From NCBI RefSeq assembly GCF_002295115.1, contig NZ_NSFV01000003.1, positions 1 to 64,000 on the forward strand: a stretch of DNA of 64,000 bases, read 5' to 3'. The DNA comes from Mesorhizobium sp. WSM4311 (lineage in GTDB: Bacteria; Pseudomonadota; Alphaproteobacteria; Rhizobiales; Rhizobiaceae). A program made the translations under genes and the position numbers. A model generated the notes under the pieces. The model saw nothing but the letters and a program-made list of their open reading frames with translations, ran no database searches and was not told the origin of the DNA. Shown here one piece after another: positions 51,649-63,849 of the stretch (position 1 is the first letter of the stretch; every line of letters begins with the position of its first letter).

Positions 51649-52620
51649 TCAGGCGCTTGCCGCCGATCTGTCCCTAGTCACAATCCGTCGCCGGTACCAC
51701 TCGAAGGTGCGCCGGATCCCTTCCTCGTAGCTGGTCGTCGCCTCCCATCCAGGAAGAACCTGCCTTGCCAGGGTCAAGTCCGGGCAGCGGTTTGTCGGAT
51801 CCTGCGGAATTGGCGCATGGTGTTCGATGCGGCTGCCCTGAACAAGCGAGCAGACGAATTTCGCGATACCGAGAACCGAGACCTCGCGATTGTTGCCGAT
51901 GTTCAGGGGTCCCCGGTATGTGATGCTGTCGCGCCAAAAGAAACGCTCCAGGCCGTCGACGATATCGTCCACATACCCCCAACTGCGCGATTGGGAGCCG
52001 TCGCCATGGACAGTCAGGATTCCCGTGGTCAGGGCCTGGCAGACAAAATTCGAAACCGCGCGGCCGTCATCGATGCGCGTTCGCGGCCCATAGGTGTTGA
52101 ACAGCCTGACGACGCGCACATCGAGCCCGCTGACACGTTGCTCCTCGAAAAGCAGCGCCTCCGTGCAGCGCTTGCTCTCGTCATAGGAGGACCTTGGCCC
52201 GGTGCAGTCCACGGATCCCCGGTAGCTCTCCGGTTGCGGCGACATCAGGGGATCGCCATAGACCTCCGAGGTCGAGGCGAAGCAGAAGCGACCGCCGGGC
52301 CTGAGCAGCGACAGGAGATTGAGCGCGCCGCCTATATTGGCTTTGATCGTGCGCGCCGGCTCGCGCATGTACCATACGGGCGAAGCCGGTGACGCCAGAT
52401 GGATGATCTCATCGAAATGCTGGCTGGTCGTGAAGGTCTCGGCATCAGCAATCCGCAGGCTGAGCCGCGGGTCCGAGACATGGGCAATGTTGTCGCGCGA
52501 TCCGGTCCACAGATTGTCGACGACGACCAGCGTTTCCAGATCGTCACGCCGCAGCAGACGATCGACAAGATGGGAGCCAAGAAAGCCGCAGCCACCAGAA
52601 ACCAACACGCTGCGCGGCAT
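51649..52620 (-). CDS. NAD-dependent epimerase/dehydratase, UDP-glucuronate decarboxylase-like
   Basis: This extended SDR of 323 aa starts MPRSVLVSGGCGFLGSHLVD. The NAD motif is GGCGFLGSH, the active-site pair is Tyr/Lys in SSYDESKR, and Ser/Thr lies in ASTSEVYGDP. The pattern RLFNTYGPR and the sugar-binding region resemble UDP-xylose synthases or dTDP-glucose dehydratases. It would supply a nucleotide sugar, and lies about 7 kb from the glycan-type cluster. The exact sugar is unknown. Confidence 0.87.
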   Translation of the reverse strand: MPRSVLVSGGCGFLGSHLVDRLLRRDDLETLVVVDNLWTGSRDNIAHVSDPRLSLRIADAETFTTSQHFDEIIHLASPASPVWYMREPARTIKANIGGALNLLSLLRPGGRFCFASTSEVYGDPLMSPQPESYRGSVDCTGPRSSYDESKRCTEALLFEEQRVSGLDVRVVRLFNTYGPRTRIDDGRAVSNFVCQALTTGILTVHGDGSQSRSWGYVDDIVDGLERFFWRDSITYRGPLNIGNNREVSVLGIAKFVCSLVQGSRIEHHAPIPQDPTNRCPDLTLARQVLPGWEATTSYEEGIRRTFEWYRRRIVTRDRSAASA

Positions 52621-54142: not shown

Positions 54143-54334
54143 GCCGACACAGAGACAAGCGGCCGGATTAAGCATCGCGATTAAGGTTACAGCTTCACAA
54201 TCGCGCCAATCCCGCCCGTTTCTGTTGACAAATCGCGGACTTGCGCCTAATCGCAATGCCAATCTTGCAAGCGCGTGGCGCTTGCCGCGACGAATAACGT
54301 TGCGCCTCCCCGAACCAGCCAAAGACAACAACAC

Positions 54335-55927
54335 TTGTCCTCAGACACCACGATCGCTCAAGAAGCGTTGACCTTTTCAGACCTCGGCCTGTCGCCGAAG
54401 GTGCTTTCCGCAGTTACCGATGCCGGCTACACGCAGCCGACACCGATCCAGGCCGGGGCCATCCCGCACGCCTTGCTCGGCAAGGACGTGCTGGGCATAG
54501 CCCAGACCGGCACCGGCAAGACGGCCTCCTTCGTGCTGCCGATGCTGACCCGGCTGGAAAAGGGCCGCGCCCGCGCCCGTATGCCGCGCACGCTGATTCT
54601 CGAACCGACGCGCGAGCTTGCCGCGCAGGTCGAGGAAAACTTCGTCAAATACGGCAAGAATCACAAGCTCAACATCGCGCTTCTGATCGGCGGCGTGTCG
54701 TTCGACGAGCAGGACAAGAAGCTGGAGCGCGGCGCCGACGTGCTGATCGCGACGCCTGGCCGTCTGCTCGACCATCGCGAACGCGGCAAGCTTCTGCTCA
54801 ACGGCGTCGAGATCCTCGTCATCGACGAGGCCGACCGGATGCTCGACATGGGCTTCATTCCCGATATCGAACGCATCTGCGAGATGATCCCGTTCACCCG
54901 GCAGACGCTGTTCTTCTCGGCGACCATGCCGCCGGAAATCACCAAGCTGACGGAAAAGTTTCTGCACGCGCCCGTGCGTGTCGAGGTTTCGAAGGCCGCG
55001 TCGGCCGCCACCAACATCACACAGCGGCTGGTCAAATCAGGCTCGAAGCCCTGGGACAAGCGCGAGACGTTGCGCAACCTCATCAAGGCCGAAGACGCTG
55101 AGTTGAAGAACGCCATCATCTTCTGCAACCGCAAGGTCGAAGTGTCGGAGCTGTTCCGCTCGCTGCTGAAGCATGATTTCGATGCCGGCGCCCTGCATGG
55201 CGACATGGACCAGCGCGCGCGCATGCAGATGCTGGCCAATTTCCGTGACGGCAAGCTGCGCTACCTCGTGGCATCGGACGTCGCCGCGCGCGGCCTCGAC
55301 ATCCCCGATGTCAGCCATGTCTTCAATTACGATGTGCCGATCCATGCCGAGGACTATGTCCACCGCATCGGCCGTACCGGCCGCGCCGGTCGCTCCGGCA
55401 AGTCCTTCACCATCGCGACGAAGTCCGACACCAAATATATCGACGCCATCGAACGGCTGATCGGCAACAAGATCGAATGGCATGACGGTGACCTGTCGAC
55501 GGTCGTGGCCAGCGAAGGCGGCGAGGACGACGCTCCGCGCCGTGGCAAAGGCGCGCCGCGCCGCGCCGGCCGCAAGGACGACGATCGCAAGGACAGAGGC
55601 GAGCGCAAGAAGGGCGGCGAACGCCGTGCCAGACACAGCGAGGAAGACGCCTCGACCGTGGTCGCACAGCAAGAACAGCCCGATGTGACTGGGACGGGCG
55701 TCGCCGATATCAGCGAGCGGCGCGCACGCAAGGACGCGATCCGTTCGGAAAACACCGAACGCAAATCCTCCGATCGCAACGAACAGCGCGCACCGGAACG
55801 CGGTGACACCAGGCCGCAGCGAGACAACAGCCGTCCTGCCCGCCATCGCCACCAGGAAGACAACGACACCACCGTTGGCTTCGGCGACGACATGCCTGCC
55901 TTCATGCGCATCGTCGCCAAGGTCTGA
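54335..55927 (+). CDS. DEAD-box ATP-dependent RNA helicase
   Basis: The protein is about 530 aa from a TTG at 54335, or 550 aa from GTG at 54275; neither has a strong ribosome-binding site. Helicase motifs are in order: Q motif TQPTPIQ, AQTGTGKT, PTRELA, TPGR, DEAD (VIDEADRMLDMG), SATMPPE, RGLDIPD and HRIGRTGRAG. A long basic, Arg/Asp/Glu-rich disordered tail (last 140 residues or so) is typical of RhlE-like rhizobial helicases for RNA binding. It acts in RNA remodelling, often cold-related. Confidence 0.93.
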   Translation: MSSDTTIAQEALTFSDLGLSPKVLSAVTDAGYTQPTPIQAGAIPHALLGKDVLGIAQTGTGKTASFVLPMLTRLEKGRARARMPRTLILEPTRELAAQVEENFVKYGKNHKLNIALLIGGVSFDEQDKKLERGADVLIATPGRLLDHRERGKLLLNGVEILVIDEADRMLDMGFIPDIERICEMIPFTRQTLFFSATMPPEITKLTEKFLHAPVRVEVSKAASAATNITQRLVKSGSKPWDKRETLRNLIKAEDAELKNAIIFCNRKVEVSELFRSLLKHDFDAGALHGDMDQRARMQMLANFRDGKLRYLVASDVAARGLDIPDVSHVFNYDVPIHAEDYVHRIGRTGRAGRSGKSFTIATKSDTKYIDAIERLIGNKIEWHDGDLSTVVASEGGEDDAPRRGKGAPRRAGRKDDDRKDRGERKKGGERRARHSEEDASTVVAQQEQPDVTGTGVADISERRARKDAIRSENTERKSSDRNEQRAPERGDTRPQRDNSRPARHRHQEDNDTTVGFGDDMPAFMRIVAKV

Positions 55928-55949
55928 CTGGGCCAAGCCTGAAATAACC

Positions 55950-55978
55950 GCCAAGCGATCGGCAAACGATCACTTGGC
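55950..55978. terminator. Hairpin between convergent helicase and wbqC-like genes
   Basis: GCCAAG.GATCG (55950-55961) pairs with CGATC.CTTGGC (55967-55978), 11 of 12 positions, with a 5-nt loop. It overlaps the last codons of the WbqC-family gene and lies 22 bp after the helicase stop, so it may serve both directions. T-runs are weak. Confidence 0.5.
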
Positions 55979-56641
55979 AAATTGGCACGTCTTTCGGATA
56001 TCATCGCGAAGGTCGGCAAGGCCGTTGCCTAGCAAGGCAGGCAAGATGTGCGGGAACCTTCCTGCATAGGGCACGAGAAATCGAAGATCTATACCTGCTT
56101 GCTGAAAGGCATCGCGTGAATAGAGGCTGCGTCCGCCCGGAGCATTGATGTAGCGCTGGCCGCCAAGTGCCTGAACGATGGCGATCACGCGGGCTTGTGC
56201 ACGCAAGGCAGGATCGATGCCGAGGCGGGAGCTGCGTACGACGTCCGGTCTGAACTGAAGCGCATCGGCCGTTAGCCGAAGACCTTCCTCGAGAAAATCT
56301 GTCACGTCACCAAGGGACCCGGTCAGGTGGCCGTTGATCTGCTCTGCCGCTGGCGTCCGCGCTTGGCATGGCAGGCCGAAGAAAGCCAGCCGCTTGTCCA
56401 AGGTGGTTCGGGCATCGTTCGCCCAGCGCAGGTCCTTTATCAGCGCGTCGAAAGGCATCGGCGCAACCGGCAATGTCAGCCAGTGTCCCGGCGTCATTTC
56501 GCAGCGGTGCACCCTTCCCCGGCGCGCAAACTGGACATCGTCGAAAACAACGAAGATGTCGCTCGTGGCCATCAGGCGGAAATAACCCGCATAGGGGAAG
56601 AAGTATGGCTGCATGACAGCAATGGTGAGCTTGTCCGTCAC
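55970..56641 (-). CDS. WbqC-family protein
   Basis: This 223-aa protein starts MTDKLTIAVMQPYFFPYAGY. The motif QPYFFPYAGYF (11-21), the early FVVFDDVQFARRG and the GQRYINAPGG-type region are hallmarks of the WbqC family. These genes occur in O-antigen and other glycan clusters and are thought to act in amino-sugar formation or transfer, but the reaction is not firmly known. The start overlaps the upstream gene stop by 4 bp (ATGA). It is the last gene of a five-gene operon. Confidence 0.9.
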   Translation of the reverse strand: MTDKLTIAVMQPYFFPYAGYFRLMATSDIFVVFDDVQFARRGRVHRCEMTPGHWLTLPVAPMPFDALIKDLRWANDARTTLDKRLAFFGLPCQARTPAAEQINGHLTGSLGDVTDFLEEGLRLTADALQFRPDVVRSSRLGIDPALRAQARVIAIVQALGGQRYINAPGGRSLYSRDAFQQAGIDLRFLVPYAGRFPHILPALLGNGLADLRDDIRKTCQFAK

Positions 56642-57579
56642 TGTGTTTCCCCTTCGCCATAGAAGAGATGAGGCAGGCTTCGAACGTGCCGCTGGAAGGC
56701 TTGCAGAACCGGAGATGCGAATGACGTGTTGCAGAAGGCGTCGAATTCAGCGCGGTCGCACAGGAAGCTGTGACGGTCGAACTGCTCGCGGCGAAGATAA
56801 TGCAGCACCCTGATGTCAGCCGCGTCATGCAGCCCGTGCGCCAGCATCTCGTCCGAGTTCGGGCAGTTGTACTCCGGCCCAAGCGGCAAAGGATCGGCTC
56901 CAACCGTCAGGATCGCCATTGACAGCGCGATCTGGGCAGAAAAGAAGATGGAGGGTGTATCCTTCAAATAGTCCAATACACGCGCCGTCAGCGGGCGGAT
57001 CAACGGCTGAATTGCGGTGAATGCCATCTTGTTGAAGACGACGAAACCATAGTTGAAATACGGCGGGCAGCCACCGAACGCTTCATCCGGCGACTGGGAA
57101 TATCGGAAGGTCAGGGGCGTGTCTGCGAAGCCGAATGCCCCGAGAAGTCGGCGCCACGCCGCGTCATTTTCCGCGCCATTTCTCGAGAATGGCGAGAAAT
57201 GCGCCGGCAGCCCGGCCACGCTAGGACGGTCGGCGTCGCGCATGCTTTGCAGAAGGCCGTCGATAGGCCGCATCAGGCAGGCGTCAGCGTCCACAAGGAT
57301 GATGACGTCGCCGCGTGGCGGTTCGGCATAACGGTCGAAGCCCGAGGAAAAGCCCCGATCGCTGACAGCGTGAGGCACGGGACGCCACGTCACCGGGTAG
57401 GTCGATGACCATCGATTGACGGCACTGATTTCACTGAAGTCGGCATGCCCCCCGACGGAGACCACAATGGGAGCGGCGGCATAGGCGCCGCCGAGACTGG
57501 CTAGCGACAAGGCGGCCAGCTTGACGTTCGAAAAAAACTCCTGTTCGGGCAGGATCGGGATTCGAAATTCGAAAGTCAT
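56638..57579 (-). CDS. Glycosyltransferase-like protein with DxD motif
   Basis: This 313-aa soluble protein starts MTFEFRIPILPEQEFFSNVK. The segment RGDVIILVDADACLMRPIDG with DADA at 97-100 resembles the nucleotide-sugar metal site of GT-A glycosyltransferases, and an N-terminal PIVVSVGGHADF strand pattern fits the fold. FGGCPPYFNYGFVVFNK is the other conserved-looking stretch, as in GT8- or GT2-like enzymes. No exact family is assigned. It lies 11 bp after the propeller protein gene. Confidence 0.7.
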   Translation of the reverse strand: MTFEFRIPILPEQEFFSNVKLAALSLASLGGAYAAAPIVVSVGGHADFSEISAVNRWSSTYPVTWRPVPHAVSDRGFSSGFDRYAEPPRGDVIILVDADACLMRPIDGLLQSMRDADRPSVAGLPAHFSPFSRNGAENDAAWRRLLGAFGFADTPLTFRYSQSPDEAFGGCPPYFNYGFVVFNKMAFTAIQPLIRPLTARVLDYLKDTPSIFFSAQIALSMAILTVGADPLPLGPEYNCPNSDEMLAHGLHDAADIRVLHYLRREQFDRHSFLCDRAEFDAFCNTSFASPVLQAFQRHVRSLPHLFYGEGETQ

Positions 57580-57589
57580 TCGGGCCTGC

Positions 57590-58540
57590 TCAGGTCAAAT
57601 CGCGGGTTGCCCAGCCGATTCCGGCCTCGCCAAACCTGTCGCCATTGTAGAACATCACGTCGCCGGAGGGGCGCTGCATGATGCAGCAATAGGCCTGCAT
57701 CGAGCTGTCGAATTCGCCGGCGGCCGGCGGATTGCTGAAGATCACAGGCTCGGCTCCACCGACGGTTCCGTTCCGGGCGTCCATGCCACGGGAAAACAGT
57801 CGGTAAGCTTCTTTGCCGCTGGCGCGAAAGTCCCGCCCGCGCCTGCTGTACCACAGGCGCATGCCATCAGCCTCATGTGTGATCCAGGGACGCGTCTGGC
57901 TGATACCGTCATCAAGATCGTCGCACAGGACGACGCTCGAGCCCGTTTCCCACAGCATGCCATCTGGTGAAAAACAGGTGCGAAGGACGTAGTCCGGCTC
58001 CAGCATACCCTTGGTCTCGGTCCAGCCGACACCGCTGGTGTACCACATGCGATAGCCGCCCTCGACCGCACTGACAAAGGGCGTCGAAACGAAATAGGGA
58101 TCAGCCGGGCTGATGCTACGGATCGGCCCGGCAAATGCTCTCTCGAAACTCAGCCCATCATCACTGACAGCGAGCCCGATCGCTGTCTGGGAGCGGACGT
58201 CGAGACGGGGATAGATACCGGAATAGTAGAGATGCACGCGCCCGCCGATCATCAGCGCACAAGACGGCCCCAGCCCGGTGCAGTCGAAACTCCCTGGCGG
58301 GCCCCACTCCAGGAGTGGATCGAGATGCTCGTCCAACACACCCATGCCGTCTTCCGGGTCGACATCGACGGCCAGAATGGATGACCGGTTGTCGCTGCTG
58401 CGCCCGGCGAAATAGATGCGCCAAAGCCGGGGCGAAAGTGCAAGGACCGTTGGGGACTGTGCGTGACTGGCCCACCACCCTTGTCCCGCCTTTACCGACA
58501 GCAATCCCCGCCGGGTCCATTTCCTCTGACGGTCGGGCAT
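57590..58540 (-). CDS. Five-bladed beta-propeller glycosidase-like protein
   Basis: The start at MPDRQRKWTRRGLLSVKAGQ (ATG 58538-58540), overlapping the previous stop, gives 316 aa. Repeated segments such as LWRIYFAGRSSDNRS, VHLYYSGIYPRLDVRSQ, YRMWYTSGVGW and MRLWYSRRGRDF are typical blades of the GH43/GH32/GH130-like propeller superfamily. There is no signal peptide, so it is cytoplasmic, unlike most degradative members. Role inside a biosynthetic operon is unclear; it may be a phosphorylase-like or binding protein. Confidence 0.72.
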   Translation of the reverse strand: MPDRQRKWTRRGLLSVKAGQGWWASHAQSPTVLALSPRLWRIYFAGRSSDNRSSILAVDVDPEDGMGVLDEHLDPLLEWGPPGSFDCTGLGPSCALMIGGRVHLYYSGIYPRLDVRSQTAIGLAVSDDGLSFERAFAGPIRSISPADPYFVSTPFVSAVEGGYRMWYTSGVGWTETKGMLEPDYVLRTCFSPDGMLWETGSSVVLCDDLDDGISQTRPWITHEADGMRLWYSRRGRDFRASGKEAYRLFSRGMDARNGTVGGAEPVIFSNPPAAGEFDSSMQAYCCIMQRPSGDVMFYNGDRFGEAGIGWATRDLT

Positions 58541-59208
58541 CAGCGGAACTTCATCGACTTGATACGGGCGCTGGAATAAGGCTTCGGCAGATCCGCGGGA
58601 TGACGAACCACACTGTTGGGCGGCACATCGCGCCGGATCATGCAACGGGACTCGATGTAGCTTCCCGCGCCGATCGTGATGCCGTTGTCGACGCCGACCT
58701 GGCCACCGATCAGGCTGCACGTACCGACACGGACACCACTCGCTAATCCCACCAGCGACGACACGAAGCAGAAGTCTTCGATGATGGAGTGATGACCCAC
58801 ATGGCTGCCGCTCCAGATGATGATACCCTCGCCGAGGCGAACAAACGGCTGCAGCGTGCAGTTTTCCAGAATGAAGCAGTTGTCGCCAACCGTCTCCGCC
58901 ATATTGTGGGTCGAGGGATGGATAAACCGCGCAAAGGCGTATCCGCGCGCCCTGCCCTCCCTGTGCCTGTTCTTGCGGAACTCGTTGAGATTCTGGTAGC
59001 TGAGCGGACCGAGCAGCTTGACGGCATCAGGCGGGAAGCGCTCCTCAAGCCTTTCCCAGGCGACCACGGGAAGGCCCTTGAACTCGGCTTGCGTGAGGAA
59101 GGCTTCGTCGACGGTGAACCCAACGACACGATCCTCGCCGAATCTGTCGAGATAGGCCTTGGCAACTTCGGCGAGCTGCCCTGCCCCAAAAATCACCACG
59201 TCCGCCAT
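58540..59208 (-). CDS. NeuD-type sugar O-acyltransferase (left-handed beta-helix)
   Basis: This 222-aa protein starts MADVVIFGAGQLAEVAKAYL. The N-terminal domain (GAGQLAEVA, 8-16) binds a nucleotide-sugar-like group, and the C-terminal hexapeptide repeats (about 105-200, for example VGDNCFILENCTLQPFVRLG and VRVGTCSLIGGQVGVDNGIT) form the beta-helix that binds acetyl-CoA. This is the NeuD/PglD-like family that acetylates amino sugars. Its stop overlaps the next gene's start (TGATG). Confidence 0.85.
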   Translation of the reverse strand: MADVVIFGAGQLAEVAKAYLDRFGEDRVVGFTVDEAFLTQAEFKGLPVVAWERLEERFPPDAVKLLGPLSYQNLNEFRKNRHREGRARGYAFARFIHPSTHNMAETVGDNCFILENCTLQPFVRLGEGIIIWSGSHVGHHSIIEDFCFVSSLVGLASGVRVGTCSLIGGQVGVDNGITIGAGSYIESRCMIRRDVPPNSVVRHPADLPKPYSSARIKSMKFR

Positions 59209-59267
59209 GCCGCCCCCGCGCCCTACCTTGCATCCCTGGTCTACTCGTCATCACCGTGGATGTCCGG

Positions 59268-59900
59268 CTATTCGGCAGCCTTGTAGACGTAAACAGTGTA
59301 TTCGTAGAGTCCGTAGTCGGCGCGGATAAGGTGATGGCGCGACAATTGACTGACGACGAAGCGGCCAATCTGGTCATAGGGCACGTGAAAGAGATCCTCG
59401 CGCTCCCAGTCGACGTGTTTCGACATCAGGTTGAAGGCCATTCCCTTGCGAGCATGCGGGAACATTTTTGCCAGCAATCCAGTCATGGCATCGAACATCG
59501 TCTCGTAGGCAATGCCGCAACGCTCCGTGAAGACACCGTTCATGATGATGTAGTCGGCCTCGGGCACAGCCGCCCCGTCCTGCATCACGTCCAGGCAATC
59601 AAAGGCCACGCCGGGATACTTGCGCCGGCACAGGTCAACGAACCGCGCCGACAGATCGAGCCCCCGGTAGTGCACCTTGCGATCAGTCTGGCGCAAATAG
59701 TCGAGGAAATGACCAGCGCCGCAGCCGAAGTCGAGCAGGTCGATCGGGTCGCGCTCGCGCACCGCCTCTGCCATGACGCGATAACGCGTCGCCGCCCCTT
59801 CGGCATCGGGCCAGTCGACTCCTTTACATGTGTCTCCGTGCCGCGCCAAACACGCCTCATAGTGCGCAACAAGCGCGCTGTACGGACCAATATCAGTCAA
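59268..59900 (-). CDS. SAM-dependent methyltransferase, class I
   Basis: This 210-aa enzyme opens with TTG at 59900 and MTDIGPYSALVAHYEACLAR. SAM motif I is LLDFGCGAGHFLDYL (55-69), followed by YRGLDLSARFVDLCR and DYIIMNGVFTER. It is the first gene of the minus-strand operon 59900-55970 and diverges from the radical SAM gene. It may methylate the glycan or its precursor; the acceptor is unknown. Confidence 0.85.
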   Translation of the reverse strand: MTDIGPYSALVAHYEACLARHGDTCKGVDWPDAEGAATRYRVMAEAVRERDPIDLLDFGCGAGHFLDYLRQTDRKVHYRGLDLSARFVDLCRRKYPGVAFDCLDVMQDGAAVPEADYIIMNGVFTERCGIAYETMFDAMTGLLAKMFPHARKGMAFNLMSKHVDWEREDLFHVPYDQIGRFVVSQLSRHHLIRADYGLYEYTVYVYKAAE

Positions 59901-60011
59901 TTGTAATATCTCATGGAATTGCCGTATACGTTCGACATGGCCCTGTATACCACGCCATCAACGACGTGAAACGCTGCCCCCCAGTAACTCCGGTCAGATC
60001 GGCTCAACACG

Positions 60012-61685
60012 ATGCGCAGTTCGCACCTCCCTTCGCCGCGCCGGCTTCGGATTTGTCTCATCAATCCGCGCTTCCATCCCTCCATCTGGACCCGCGATGA
60101 GGTTCTCGCCATTCTACCCGGCGGCAAGCGCAGTTGGATCGTGACGGGCTCCTTGCCGGCACTGGCGGCCCTTGCTCCAGAGCATTGCGATGTCGTCCTG
60201 GTCGACGAGAACGTCGAGGACATCGATTTCGAGCACCTCGGCGACTTCGACATCGTTGGCGTGACCGGCATGATCGTGCAGCGTGAGCGCATGTTCGAAA
60301 TCCTCGATCGGCTCCGCGATCTTCCGGTTACCGCAGTGGTGGGCGGTCCCTATGTCTCGGTATCGGAACCGGAATTTGTCGATCGTTGTGACGTGCGCTT
60401 CATCGGCGAAGCCGAGGAGACATGGCCACGCTTCCTGACGGCTTTCGCCCTGGGCGAGTCAGTGCATCGGCGTTACGAGCAAGACGCGAAAACGAACATG
60501 GAGACCGTGCCGACGCCGCGATACGACCTGCTGAAATCCGGACGCTACATGGTGGCATCGCTGCAGTTCTCGCGAGGGTGTCCCTTCCTGTGCGAATTCT
60601 GCGACATCATAACCATCTTCGGTCGCCGCCCACGCCTCAAGTTGCCCGCGCAAATGATCCTCGAATGCGAGGCGATCGTGAAAGCCGGATTCAGCACCTG
60701 CTTCCTGGTCGACGACAATTTTATCGGCAACAAGGCCAAGGCCAAGGAGTTGCTGCGCGTCCTGATCGATTGGCAGCAGGCAAACAACTATCCGCTGGTC
60801 TTCTCCACCGAGGCCAGCATCAATCTGGCCGACGATGAGGAAATGCTCGATCTGATGCGGCTGGCCAACTTCCGCCAGGTCTTTGTCGGGATCGAATCGC
60901 CCCGCGCCTCGTCATTGGCAGAAACCAGGAAGGTTCAAAACGTCCGCGGCGACTCCATGATCGAGAAGTTGCAACGCATTCGCGGCGCGGGACTGGTGAT
61001 TCAGGCCGGCTTCATCGTTGGATTCGATGCCGATGACGAAGCGATCTTCGACGAGCAGTTCGCGTTCATTCAGCAAAGCGGCATCGCACCGGTTACCGTA
61101 AGCATCCTGTGCCCGATCCCGACGACTCCACTTTACGACCGGCTGAGGACCGAAGGCCGGCTGGATCTCAGTGACCCTCATGTCAGTTTTCATCCCAAGA
61201 ACATGACGCGCGAAGTCCTCAAGGCCGGCTACGACAAGTTGGTGCGGCGTCTGTATGAGCCGGATGCCTATTTCGATCGCCTGGTCGACGGGTATGCCGG
61301 ATCGCCGGGCTTCCGTCGCAGCCGGGCCGCCCAGGCGATGTTGGTTGGAAGAGAGCGTTCCGGCATGGGCCGGCTCGCAGAACTGGCTGCGGCCGCTCTG
61401 ACGGCCACCCGTCTTCTTGGAACCCTGATTGCCAAGCGACAGGCCATATCGCTTGGCAGCGCCTATGTCAGGCATTGGCGCCGCAATCGTCGTCTCTGTG
61501 GCCGTGAGGCGATACCATTCGGCAGCTTCGTGTTTCTTTGCATCGAGCATTGGCATTGCTACGTTATCTCGCAGACCAGCATCTGGTTCCAGATCGGCAG
61601 CAGCCGGCCCGAAACGATGCGGCCATTGCCCGCCAATGAAGATCTTTACCTGCCCAAGATTGCCGACGGTCGCAAAGCTTCATGA
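60012..61685 (+). CDS. B12-binding-domain-type radical SAM enzyme
   Basis: This 557-aa protein has an N-terminal Rossmann-like cobalamin-type domain (LRICLINPRF to FIGEAEETW, about 12-138) and a radical SAM barrel with the [4Fe-4S] cysteines Cys190, Cys194 and Cys197 in RGCPFLCEFCDI. The usual cobalamin His motif DxHxxG is not seen, so B12 may not be bound through His. A C-terminal DUF4070-like helical tail follows. It overlaps the aminotransferase start by 4 bp. The start is the ATG at 60012; a few residues later no better start is seen. Confidence 0.9.
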   Translation: MRSSHLPSPRRLRICLINPRFHPSIWTRDEVLAILPGGKRSWIVTGSLPALAALAPEHCDVVLVDENVEDIDFEHLGDFDIVGVTGMIVQRERMFEILDRLRDLPVTAVVGGPYVSVSEPEFVDRCDVRFIGEAEETWPRFLTAFALGESVHRRYEQDAKTNMETVPTPRYDLLKSGRYMVASLQFSRGCPFLCEFCDIITIFGRRPRLKLPAQMILECEAIVKAGFSTCFLVDDNFIGNKAKAKELLRVLIDWQQANNYPLVFSTEASINLADDEEMLDLMRLANFRQVFVGIESPRASSLAETRKVQNVRGDSMIEKLQRIRGAGLVIQAGFIVGFDADDEAIFDEQFAFIQQSGIAPVTVSILCPIPTTPLYDRLRTEGRLDLSDPHVSFHPKNMTREVLKAGYDKLVRRLYEPDAYFDRLVDGYAGSPGFRRSRAAQAMLVGRERSGMGRLAELAAAALTATRLLGTLIAKRQAISLGSAYVRHWRRNRRLCGREAIPFGSFVFLCIEHWHCYVISQTSIWFQIGSSRPETMRPLPANEDLYLPKIADGRKAS

Positions 61686-62809
61686 CGGGCAGACTATGGG
61701 ATGCCGATCCCGATCCAGCGCCTGATGTCCCGGTCGCCCGCCCGCGCCTGCCAACGACGGACGACATCCTGCCCTATCTGCGCGAGATCGACGCGAACCG
61801 CTGGTACAGCAACAACGGTCCGCTAAATCAGCGCTTCCAGGAAGCTCTCAGGGCACGGATCGCGGTGGGTCATGTCGTGTGCCTGGCAAACGCAACGCTG
61901 GGGTTGGCGCTGGCGCTGATGGCGCAGAAACCGGCGAACGGCAGTCTCTGCATGATGCCGTCCTGGACCTTCGCCGCCAGCGCGCATGCGGCGGTCCTCG
62001 CAGGGCTCGTTCCCTGGCTTGTCGACGTCGACCTCGACACCCAGCAATTGTTGCCAGAGGCGGCGATGCAACTCCTCAGTCAGGCTCCTGGCAAGGTCGG
62101 TGCCGTCATGCCGGTCATGCCATTCGGTGGCCCGATGGATGCCGCGAACTGGGATCGGTTCAAGAGCGATACCGGTCTTGCCGTGGCAATCGACGCGGCC
62201 GCGGCCTTCGATTCACTGACGCCATCGCGGGTTCCGGCAGTCGTCAGCCTGCATGCCACCAAGGCACTCGGCGTTGGCGAAGGTTGCTTCATCGCGTCCG
62301 ATGACGGCGCTCTGATCGACGAAATTGTGAAGAGGGCCAATTTTGGTTTTGCAAATTCGCGCGAGGCGGCATCGCCGGGGTTGAATGGCAAGCTCAATGA
62401 GTACAGCGCGGCCGTCGGCCTCGCCGCACTGGACGGTTGGGCACTTACGCGTGCCGCCTACCAGCGTGTTGCCAGAGGCTATTGCCGCTCGTTTGATTCG
62501 GCTTCCGGGTTGAACGTGCAGGATGGATTCGGCGAACGCTGGATATCCTCCACCGTTACCGTTGGCCTGCCGTCGGGTTCGATGGAAAGGGCGCTCATGG
62601 TGCTGACGCAAGCCGGTATCGGTGTCCGTCGATGGTGGGGCGGCGGCCTGCATCGGCACACAGCCTTCGAACATTTTCCCAGAGTACCACTGCCGGCCAC
62701 CGAGGCGCTTGTTGCGACTCAACTGGGCCTGCCTTGCTGGACAGATCTTCCGGATGAAGCAATCTCGCGTATCTGCTCCATTCTCATCGACGCGCTGACA
62801 GCGGGCTGA
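61682..62809 (+). CDS. DegT/DnrJ/EryC1/StrS-family aminotransferase
   Basis: This PLP aminotransferase of 375 aa makes amino sugars from keto-sugars. The PLP lysine is Lys194 in SLHATKALGVGEGCFI, Asp171 in AIDAAAAFDS contacts the cofactor, and NATLGLALALMA and MPSWTFAASAHA match the substrate loops. It is translationally coupled to the radical SAM gene (ATGA). Together with the NeuD-like and WbqC genes it points to an amino-sugar product. Confidence 0.9.
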   Translation: MTGRLWDADPDPAPDVPVARPRLPTTDDILPYLREIDANRWYSNNGPLNQRFQEALRARIAVGHVVCLANATLGLALALMAQKPANGSLCMMPSWTFAASAHAAVLAGLVPWLVDVDLDTQQLLPEAAMQLLSQAPGKVGAVMPVMPFGGPMDAANWDRFKSDTGLAVAIDAAAAFDSLTPSRVPAVVSLHATKALGVGEGCFIASDDGALIDEIVKRANFGFANSREAASPGLNGKLNEYSAAVGLAALDGWALTRAAYQRVARGYCRSFDSASGLNVQDGFGERWISSTVTVGLPSGSMERALMVLTQAGIGVRRWWGGGLHRHTAFEHFPRVPLPATEALVATQLGLPCWTDLPDEAISRICSILIDALTAG

Positions 62810-62836
62810 CGCAATATCTTAAGTGGGCTTACAACA

Positions 62837-62863
62837 AAAACGGCCCACGCGAAGGGCCGTTTT
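62837..62863. terminator. Bidirectional terminator after the aminotransferase
   Basis: A perfect 10-bp stem (AAAACGGCCC 62837-62846 with GGGCCGTTTT 62854-62863) with a 7-nt loop lies 27 bp after the aminotransferase stop. Runs of A and T on both sides allow it to end the exported-protein transcript from the other strand too. Confidence 0.88.
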
Positions 62864-63038
62864 GTGGCCGGACAGACAGTTGGCGACCGCCAGCACCCGG
62901 CCCTACGACCGATTGAAATTGTGCTGGTCGCCGCCGTCGAATCGGTATGGCCGAACACGTCGACGGTCGTCTGGCGGAACTTCTTCAGGACCAACCGCAA
63001 CCGAATTCAGCGCCGACATGCATTGGCCTGGCCGGCCG

Positions 63039-63647
63039 CTACATCGGCCCAGGCATCATCTTGGTCGGCTTCTCCAGCATCGGAAAATCGGCCTTGTTGC
63101 ATTTCACGTTCGGATTCGTCGGACTGAACATGCCGTTCGGATTGTCCCTGAACAGCCAGGCGTGAAGATCGTAGTGGACGAACTCCCTCGGGATGAGCGG
63201 GTAGTGTCCCTCCATCGGGCCCATGAATTTCTGGCCAAACAGTGTGGGAGCCTCCTTGGTGTCCGGTGTCAACGGCACCAGCCATTCCACGCCGACCAAC
63301 TTCAGGCCTTTCTTGGTCGGCTCGTAGATCAGCACGTTGGGCTTCATCGGGTCGAGCTTCTGGCCGACGCTTGGGACGTTGACGAAATGGACGCCCATGG
63401 CGCCTTTTGGGTAATCCATCGAGCCCGGTATCTTTTCGCCACTGTAGAAGACGCAGCCGACCGTCGACAGATAGAGGTCGCGGACAGCTGCGGTGTAGTC
63501 TTCATACTTGGCCAAAGATTTCTTCAAGGCTTCGATGTCGGCCTTGTTGGCGTCCTCGGCCCGAGCCGTAGTGACGCCCAACCATGCGCCAAGGAGACCT
63601 GTCAAAGCGAGGACGCCGCAGCGCCCAAGGCTGGCTGTTCTTGTCAT
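63039..63647 (-). CDS. Exported protein of unknown function, 202 aa
   Basis: The start at MTRTASLGRCGVLALTGLLG (ATG 63645-63647; GGAGGAATGC ribosome-binding site) includes a signal peptide ending near ARAEDANK; the longer frame from 63767 is not used. The mature part carries LYLSTVGCVFYSGEKIPG, VGVEWLVPLTPDTKEAP and FVHYDLHAWLFRDNPNGMFS. His residues and Cys suggest a possible metal or disulfide site. It resembles conserved periplasmic hypotheticals but no family is assigned. Confidence 0.75.
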   Translation of the reverse strand: MTRTASLGRCGVLALTGLLGAWLGVTTARAEDANKADIEALKKSLAKYEDYTAAVRDLYLSTVGCVFYSGEKIPGSMDYPKGAMGVHFVNVPSVGQKLDPMKPNVLIYEPTKKGLKLVGVEWLVPLTPDTKEAPTLFGQKFMGPMEGHYPLIPREFVHYDLHAWLFRDNPNGMFSPTNPNVKCNKADFPMLEKPTKMMPGPM

Positions 63648-63849
63648 GCATTCCTCCCAGATTTCTGATCTGGCCGTGCAAGACCGAGGCAGGAAAAAAT
63701 GCTGATCGCGCGGCCAGTAGTACCGCCTCATCCCCTCCGGAACAGCGACAATACTATTCCTTTCCACGGCTGCGGGGAACTTGTTATTTAGAACTAGCTA
63801 ATACGCCGGCGTACCAATCCGAAAGAGCGCAGGACGTCCGCTTAAACAG

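What the first reader, a model, noticed from the sequence alone, without database searches (positions are those of the whole stretch)
55970..62809. Compact divergent gene cluster for an unknown amino-sugar glycoconjugate
Seven genes in two divergent, tightly coupled operons combine functions I do not recognise as a named pathway: methyltransferase, NeuD-type acyltransferase, cytoplasmic beta-propeller glycosidase-like protein, DxD glycosyltransferase-like protein and WbqC family on one strand, and a radical SAM enzyme plus DegT/StrS aminotransferase on the other. Overlapping starts and stops (TGATG, ATGA) show coordinated expression. No flippase or polymerase is present, so the product may be soluble, a lipid-linked sugar or a protein modification. 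A UDP-sugar SDR lies at 51649-52620.
Basis: partly seen in the sequence, partly recalled or inferred. Interest (0 to 1): 0.75.

Follow-up and report, generated by a model that had tools for sequence, protein, structure and literature searches.

The report
Inserted amino-sugar cassette with radical methylase
This is a seven-gene block, inserted between two ordinary genes of a Mesorhizobium-type soil bacterium and shared by scattered distant relatives, that is predicted to build an unusual amino sugar carrying an amino-acid tail and a likely radical-made methyl group and would attach it to a surface molecule, giving a candidate job to a radical-enzyme group whose role is unknown.

Summary
The seven genes are real and belong together. 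They fill a 7.0-kb insert (55947-62968); in 8 of 12 cassette-free relatives checked the flanking genes lie side by side. All seven recur in Mesorhizobium, Rhizobium, Aminobacter and a betaproteobacterium (one gene cut by a contig end), six of seven in another alphaproteobacterium. A looser set (DegT, WbqC, acyltransferase, methyltransferase, beta-propeller) sits in other bacteria, mostly in glycan clusters. Best reading: a module that makes and attaches a modified 4-amino-4,6-dideoxyhexose. Two additions: (1) the WbqC model resembles BshC, a putative cysteine ligase, and class I aminoacyl-tRNA synthetases, so WbqC may join an amino acid to the sugar amine; (2) the radical SAM enzyme is HpnP-like, a group without known role, and falls in a cassette-linked set apart from stand-alone relatives, in genomes where no squalene-hopene cyclase was found, so its substrate is likely the sugar or its tail. 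The GT model has a GT8-like fold. The SDR at 51649 is not part of it. Product, acceptor and every chemical step are inferred.

The parts
55947..62968 (.). Whole cassette as an insert between a DEAD-box helicase gene (54275-55927) and a conserved hypothetical gene (63039-63767)
   Evidence: Alignment with cassette-free L083 runs to 55946 and resumes at 62969; 8 of 12 cassette-free Mesorhizobium genomes checked have the two flanking genes 77-203 bp apart
55970..56641 (-). WbqC family protein, 223 aa; predicted amino-acid:amino-sugar ligase (inferred from fold)
56638..57579 (-). GT-A glycosyltransferase, GT8-like fold, DxD at residues 97-99 (full-length numbering), 313 aa
57590..58540 (-). GH130/GH43-like beta-propeller protein, 316 aa, role unknown
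   Evidence: Weak match to beta-1,2-mannobiose phosphorylase; start set by the TGATG junction; D95, D137, D202, R50, R56, R243 invariant in 16 rows (numbering of the 325-aa frame 57590-58567, 9 more than from the ATG at 58540). That it is a propeller is inferred from these families; it was not modelled
58540..59208 (-). NeuD/PglD/VioB-type hexapeptide acyltransferase, 222 aa
   Evidence: TIGR03570 116.6 bits, below its cut-off of 160.8; perosamine N-acetyltransferase 4ea7 E 2.8e-9
59268..59900 (-). Class I SAM methyltransferase, 210 aa
   Evidence: PF08242 35.7 bits; C60, G61, G63 invariant in 12 rows
59901..60011 (.). 111-bp divergent intergenic stretch between the two operons; no promoter-like match there
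60012..61685 (+). HpnP-like cobalamin-type radical SAM enzyme, 557 aa, CxxxCxxC at residues 190-197
   Evidence: PF04055 and PF13282 over cut-off, PF02310 just below; tree; motif position
61682..62809 (+). DegT/DnrJ/EryC1/StrS sugar aminotransferase, 375 aa; predicted PLP lysine K194
   Evidence: PF01041 172.1 bits; PDB 3ju7 E 1e-41, 2po3 E 7.6e-36; K194 invariant in 19 rows
55948..55980 (-). Terminator-like hairpin (14 pairs) after WbqC
   Evidence: total number of such sites is near the shuffled mean (8 against 6.1)

Best explanation
The cassette likely makes and attaches a heavily modified 4-amino-4,6-dideoxyhexose to a glycan or glycolipid that the cell builds elsewhere. Inferred order: the housekeeping enzyme RmlB supplies dTDP-4-keto-6-deoxyglucose; the DegT enzyme aminates C-4; WbqC activates an amino acid and joins it to that amine (BshC/MshC-like logic); the NeuD-type acyltransferase and the methyltransferase cap the tail or a hydroxyl; the HpnP-like radical SAM enzyme adds a methyl to an unactivated carbon of the sugar or its tail; the GT8-like transferase moves the sugar to its acceptor. 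The propeller's step is unknown. Shown by sequence comparison: the gene set, its conservation, its insertion site, and presence or absence of supporting genes; the folds are predicted models. Not shown: every chemical step, the product and the acceptor.
Against: No product, acceptor or enzyme activity is known. Foldseek finds no significant PDB match for WbqC (0 at E<=0.001), and its sequence profile does not find BshC. NeuD, DesI and B12-binding scores lie below curated cut-offs. In the window's radical SAM enzyme DUF4070 matches only positions 1-61 of 144. The dTDP precursor rests on family resemblance; no 4,6-dehydratase is in the cassette. The cassette is rare: strong GT match in 6 of 146 genus genomes, and only the own genome among 385 of the class. 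The six related modules show no match to this radical SAM enzyme, so it is an addition and not a core step. The alphaproteobacterial MAG has no methyltransferase match. The support of the radical SAM set is moderate (SH-aLRT 82).
Confidence: 0.55

Rival explanations
1. Same amino-sugar module, but the radical SAM enzyme is likely not a C-methylase: it would dehydrate, epimerise or rearrange the sugar, as AprD4- or HpnJ-type enzymes do.
For: AprD4 (28.6 bits), HpnJ (55.4) and BchE (70.1) models all match weakly. [quoted passage not shown]
Against: No model reaches its cut-off. The domain set (B12-binding, radical SAM, DUF4070) is that of HpnP, and matches of like strength include methyltransferase families such as PhpK (68.8 bits). 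What AprD4 and HpnJ do beyond their NCBIfam names is recalled.
Confidence: 0.2
2. The cassette likely makes a soluble, secreted or intracellular small molecule (a pseudo-aminoglycoside or thiol-like metabolite) and not a surface glycan decoration.
For: No flippase or polymerase lies in the insert and no glycan cluster was seen beside it at 49-64 kb of the window; the WbqC model resembles BshC, which acts in a low-molecular-weight metabolite pathway (PMC4360819, passages); GenK shows radical SAM C-methylation of an aminoglycoside (PMC4039129, start of abstract in search listing).
Against: The insert holds no exporter, resistance or carrier-protein gene; sister modules lie among glycosyltransferase or other polysaccharide genes and the Rhizobium JAB6 copy lies beside rml and glycosyltransferase genes.
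Confidence: 0.2
3. The radical SAM enzyme is a lipid or hopanoid methylase that only happens to sit beside a sugar cluster.
For: The family resemblance, and 33-40% identity to proteins of Komagataeibacter, Methylocystis, Methylobacterium, Chroococcidiopsis and others (that such taxa make 2-methylhopanoids and that these are HpnP proper is recalled; no NCBIfam HpnP model named them). 19 relatives at 44-52% identity stand outside the cassette.
Against: No squalene-hopene cyclase found in 7 of 7 carriers searched; cassette-linked members fall in one set of 34 rows apart from the stand-alone ones (SH-aLRT 82); the gene overlaps DegT by 4 bases and lies with the cassette genes in all 10 carriers.
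Confidence: 0.05

Closest known systems
VioA/VioB pathway of dTDP-4-acetamido-4,6-dideoxyglucose (E. coli O39, O49, O116; PMC4732683, passage)
   Same: 4-aminotransferase followed by an N-acetyltransferase on a dTDP-4-keto-6-deoxy sugar
   Different: Here WbqC, a propeller, a methyltransferase, a radical SAM enzyme and a GT8-like transferase are added, and there is no Wzx/Wzy. Not compared by sequence here except through NCBIfam's NeuD/PglB/VioB model
N-acetylglycyl-Qui4N of E. coli O121 (PMC3210612, passage; wbqE as O121 gene in PMC4536017, passage)
   Same: 4-amino sugar with an acylated amino-acid tail; the wbq prefix is used for O121. WbqC is called functionally uncharacterised but found in an E. 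coli O-antigen cluster (PMC5532660, passage). That this cluster is O121's, and that a WbqC relative was proposed as glycine transferase, is recalled
   Different: No radical SAM enzyme is known to me there; not compared by sequence here
BshC and MshC cysteine ligases of bacillithiol and mycothiol synthesis (PMC4360819, passages)
   Different: No sequence match; WbqC is much shorter (223 against 540 residues), so it lacks most of BshC's added parts; BshC activity itself was undemonstrated in that 2015 review
HpnP hopanoid C-2 methyltransferase and HpnP-like proteins (PMC10697835, passages)
   Same: B12-binding, radical SAM and DUF4070 domains
   Different: No squalene-hopene cyclase found in the hosts searched; a separate set in the tree, which holds no experimentally proven HpnP; operon with sugar genes
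GenK radical SAM C-methylase of gentamicin (PMC4039129, start of abstract only)
   Same: Precedent for a radical SAM enzyme methylating an aminoglycoside at a sugar carbon
   Different: Antibiotic pathway; not compared by sequence

Membership tests
WbqC family (PF08889) | Pfam gathering score | tested here: met
   109.6 bits against 21.3
BshC-type amino-acid ligase | Shared core fold | tested here: inconclusive
BshC-type amino-acid ligase | ATP-dependent joining of an amino acid to a sugar amine | not testable with these tools
   Needs enzyme assay
HpnP hopanoid C-2 methyltransferase | B12-binding, radical SAM and DUF4070 domains | tested here: inconclusive
   Radical SAM 45.5 and DUF4070 40.0 bits over cut-off, but DUF4070 only positions 1-61 of 144; B12-binding 29.3 against cut-off 32.1. 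Cassette relatives L014, L015, L017 reach DUF4070 position 140; B12-binding is over cut-off in L017 only
HpnP hopanoid C-2 methyltransferase | Host makes hopanoids (squalene-hopene cyclase) | tested here: not met
   PF13249 in 0 of 7 carriers searched; control rings in Bacillus subtilis
DegT/StrS sugar aminotransferase | PF01041 score and PLP lysine | tested here: met
   172.1 bits against 19.8; K194 invariant in 19 rows
DesI dTDP-4-keto-6-deoxyglucose 4-aminotransferase | NCBIfam equivalog cut-off | tested here: not met
   154.7 against 650 bits; best of the named models, so works like, not member
NeuD/PglD/VioB acyltransferase subfamily | TIGR03570 cut-off | tested here: not met
   116.6 against 160.8 bits, covering profile 2-197 of 202
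GT8 glycosyltransferase | GT-A fold of GT8 with DxD | tested here: met
GT8 glycosyltransferase | Sequence match to a Pfam glycosyltransferase family | tested here: not met
   No Pfam match at E<=0.1
GH130 mannobiose phosphorylase | NF052550 cut-off | tested here: not met
   18.1 against 450 bits
Wzx/Wzy O-antigen cluster | Flippase and polymerase genes | tested here: not met
   Insert holds only the seven genes, none of a flippase or polymerase family; highest 19-residue hydropathy values are 1.87 (DegT) and 1.74 (GT), single stretches

The most novel reading that the evidence does not exclude
A previously unassigned clade of HpnP-like cobalamin radical SAM enzymes C-methylates an aminoacylated amino sugar, not a hopanoid. 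It works with WbqC, a minimal BshC-like amino-acid ligase, and a GT8-like transferase in a self-contained seven-gene cassette that moves between bacterial classes and plants a new branched, amino-acid-bearing sugar on whatever surface glycan the recipient makes.
Probability: 0.35. Interest if true: 0.78.

Novelty: new variant of a known kind. Interest (0 to 1): 0.6.

Why it matters
HpnP-like proteins are described as uncharacterised in hopanoid biomarker work: it is unknown whether they act on hopanoids at all (PMC10697835, passages). A set of them fixed in a sugar cassette, in bacteria where no squalene-hopene cyclase was found, gives a concrete non-lipid substrate class to test. The BshC-like fold turns WbqC, called functionally uncharacterised (PMC5532660, passage), into a testable amino-acid ligase. 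The clean insert makes a natural with/without comparison possible.

Tried and rejected
Radical SAM as hopanoid enzyme: disfavoured for lack of squalene-hopene cyclase. SDR at 51649 as part of the set: rejected. Radical SAM homologues at E<=1e-90: only the own genome of 398 in the phylum sample; 20 of 397 in the order sample, own included; in the rows shown of both calls at most 3 first-look candidates per genome were scored. The 19 others were not in the module; two of them (L056, L058) lie at a contig start, so one side is unseen. GT in the family sample: 4 of 151, of which two (G032, G129) are distant DegT-GT pairs. E. coli WbqC by DNA from a Proteus copy: no match, so the O121 comparison stays with literature and recall. 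Papers on 'WbqC': 12 listed, one opened for a passage (uncharacterised); 'wbnG' glycine transferase: none; radical SAM with O-antigen, cobalamin and deoxysugar terms: none. VIA-align lists only Foldseek's candidates, so other folds are not excluded for either model; the propeller was not modelled. L019 (Beijerinckiaceae) has radical SAM, GT, DegT and methyltransferase matches, but its radical SAM gene lies 8.6 kb from the GT and matches DUF4070 over positions 1-141 of 144, so it was not counted as a carrier; L018 (Verrucomicrobia) has GT and radical SAM only and was not counted, though its radical SAM was labelled 'cassette' in the tree. L006 and L017 are the same genome, counted once. In the tree, 26 of the 120 listed radical SAM proteins were used, chosen by hand; two of them (P0166, P0173) fall outside the cassette-linked set, whose support is 82; L019 is a very long branch. 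Contig-length sharing is a proxy read from the capped lists: 11 shared longest-contig lengths between 120 radical SAM and 120 WbqC entries, 7 radical SAM-GT, 8 WbqC-GT; one of the 11 (3,141 bases) is short. Empty-site test: 12 of the 138 GT-negative genus genomes were picked by me from rows shown in earlier outputs; 8 have the flanking genes 77-203 bp apart, one about 1.26 kb apart, three show no hyp63 within the 1.5-kb flank. The six plasmid records were picked because they match both the propeller search (30 records) and the WbqC search (41 records); others were not read.
Full report
Observation. The seven genes exist as described. Two operons diverge from a 111-bp gap: radical SAM-DegT on the plus strand and methyltransferase-NeuD-propeller-GT-WbqC on the minus strand. 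Coupling is tight: NeuD/propeller TGATG, radical SAM/DegT ATGA, GT/WbqC GTGA. No promoter-like site was found in the gap.

Insert. Against cassette-free genome locus L083 the alignment runs to 55946 and resumes at 62969, so 55947-62968 (about 7.0 kb) is extra DNA. In 8 of 12 cassette-free Mesorhizobium genomes the DEAD-box gene and the hypothetical gene are 77-203 bp apart; one has a gap of about 1.26 kb and three gave no result within the fetched flank. The insert's G+C is 60.7% against 62.4% for the rest of the window.

Distribution. With the GT profile, 8 of 146 genus genomes match, 6 strongly; the two weak ones show a DegT-GT pair only. The named-genome scan gave 11 loci. All seven genes lie together in five named Mesorhizobium (in L009 DegT runs off the contig), Rhizobium sp. 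JAB6, Aminobacter sp. HY435 and a Herminiimonas MAG (seventh gene cut by the contig end); an alphaproteobacterial MAG has six, without the methyltransferase. With the window that is 9 carriers of seven and one of six. NeuD-propeller-GT-WbqC is constant in order; methyltransferase, DegT and radical SAM move. In Herminiimonas all seven read the same way. Identity to the window falls from 74-96% in Mesorhizobium to 34-62% in Herminiimonas.

A looser module. WbqC and propeller searches in plasmids (41 and 30 records) led me to six records that match both. All six have DegT, WbqC, propeller, a methyltransferase and an acetyltransferase or GNAT enzyme close together (Rhizobium leguminosarum, Tateyamaria, Acuticoccus, Allorhizobium, Azospirillum, Bernardetia); the methyltransferase resembles the window's in three of them. 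In R. leguminosarum the module stands alone beside transporter genes; the other five hold glycan genes such as GT2, GT61, pyruvyl transferase, rfbC or a QdtA-type cupin. None shows a match to this radical SAM enzyme. So the amino-sugar module is of a known kind and the radical SAM enzyme is an addition.

Sugar. The DegT enzyme is closest by PDB sequence to 3ju7 (a putative aminotransferase) and 2po3, listed there as a 4-dehydrase, and by NCBIfam to DesI, below its cut-off. An RmlB over its cut-off is present in 7 of 7 carriers searched, and the JAB6 cassette lies beside rmlA-D homologues. VioA/VioB do the analogous two steps in E. coli (PMC4732683, passage). A dTDP-4-amino-4,6-dideoxyhexose is therefore the likely intermediate; this is inference.

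Radical SAM. It has HpnP-type domains, with CxxxCxxC from residue 190. The HpnP paper states that HpnP-like proteins with these domains are uncharacterised and may not act on hopanoids (PMC10697835, passages). In a 60-row tree the cassette copies and the proteins whose longest contig length equals that of a GT or WbqC hit fall in one set of 34 rows (10 cassette, 12 so linked, 12 unlabelled; SH-aLRT 82), apart from 17 plus 3 stand-alone relatives. Nineteen of those twenty stand-alone genes were checked for cassette partners in 14-19.5 kb stretches and show none; the twentieth, on a Skermanella plasmid, has no such gene annotated nearby. No squalene-hopene cyclase is found in 7 of 7 carriers searched, while a cobamide gene is in 7 of 7. 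Methylation of the sugar or its tail is the best guess; GenK is a precedent for radical SAM methylation of an aminoglycoside (PMC4039129, abstract start).

Verdict. A coherent, probably mobile amino-sugar cassette, a new variant of a known kind, whose interest lies in the radical SAM set and the WbqC fold.

Noticed in passing
window 62865-63015: A 151-bp block beside the insert's right end has a second copy (82%, same direction) about 1.16 kb further on, just past the window (L094 2028-2178), so the two copies flank the hypothetical gene 63039-63767; M. jarvisii (L013) has both copies too, while the eight cassette-free sites compared have only the far one (L083 also a 47-bp piece on the near side). 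It may have served in the acquisition.
   Followed up: partly
L012 4765-12545: In this Mesorhizobium MAG the cassette lies on the other side of the hypothetical gene, and about 5.1 kb of other DNA separates that gene from the helicase.
   Followed up: no
L031 7860-13815: Rhizobium leguminosarum plasmid pRL23b6 carries a free-standing DegT-WbqC-propeller-propeller-GNAT-methyltransferase-GT island between transporter genes.
   Followed up: no
L007, L008, L035, L075, L076: DegT-GT pairs occur without the rest of the cassette in other Rhizobiaceae and a Rhodobacteraceae plasmid; in L075 the GT match is split by a TAG stop.
   Followed up: partly
L063-L073: Stand-alone HpnP-like genes at 46-49% identity share neighbours across one family of the order (f114): the helper script found ORFs near L067's copy again in up to 9 other loci. 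Function unknown.
   Followed up: no
L078 6980-8581: On a conjugative Komagataeibacter plasmid an HpnP-type radical SAM gene sits between arsenic-resistance genes and carbohydrate porins.
   Followed up: no
window 51649-52620: SDR of the dTDP-glucose dehydratase/GalE type (108.8 bits, below cut-off) shared with L009 and L013 at 95% but without a match beside the cassette in L010 and L011.
   Followed up: partly
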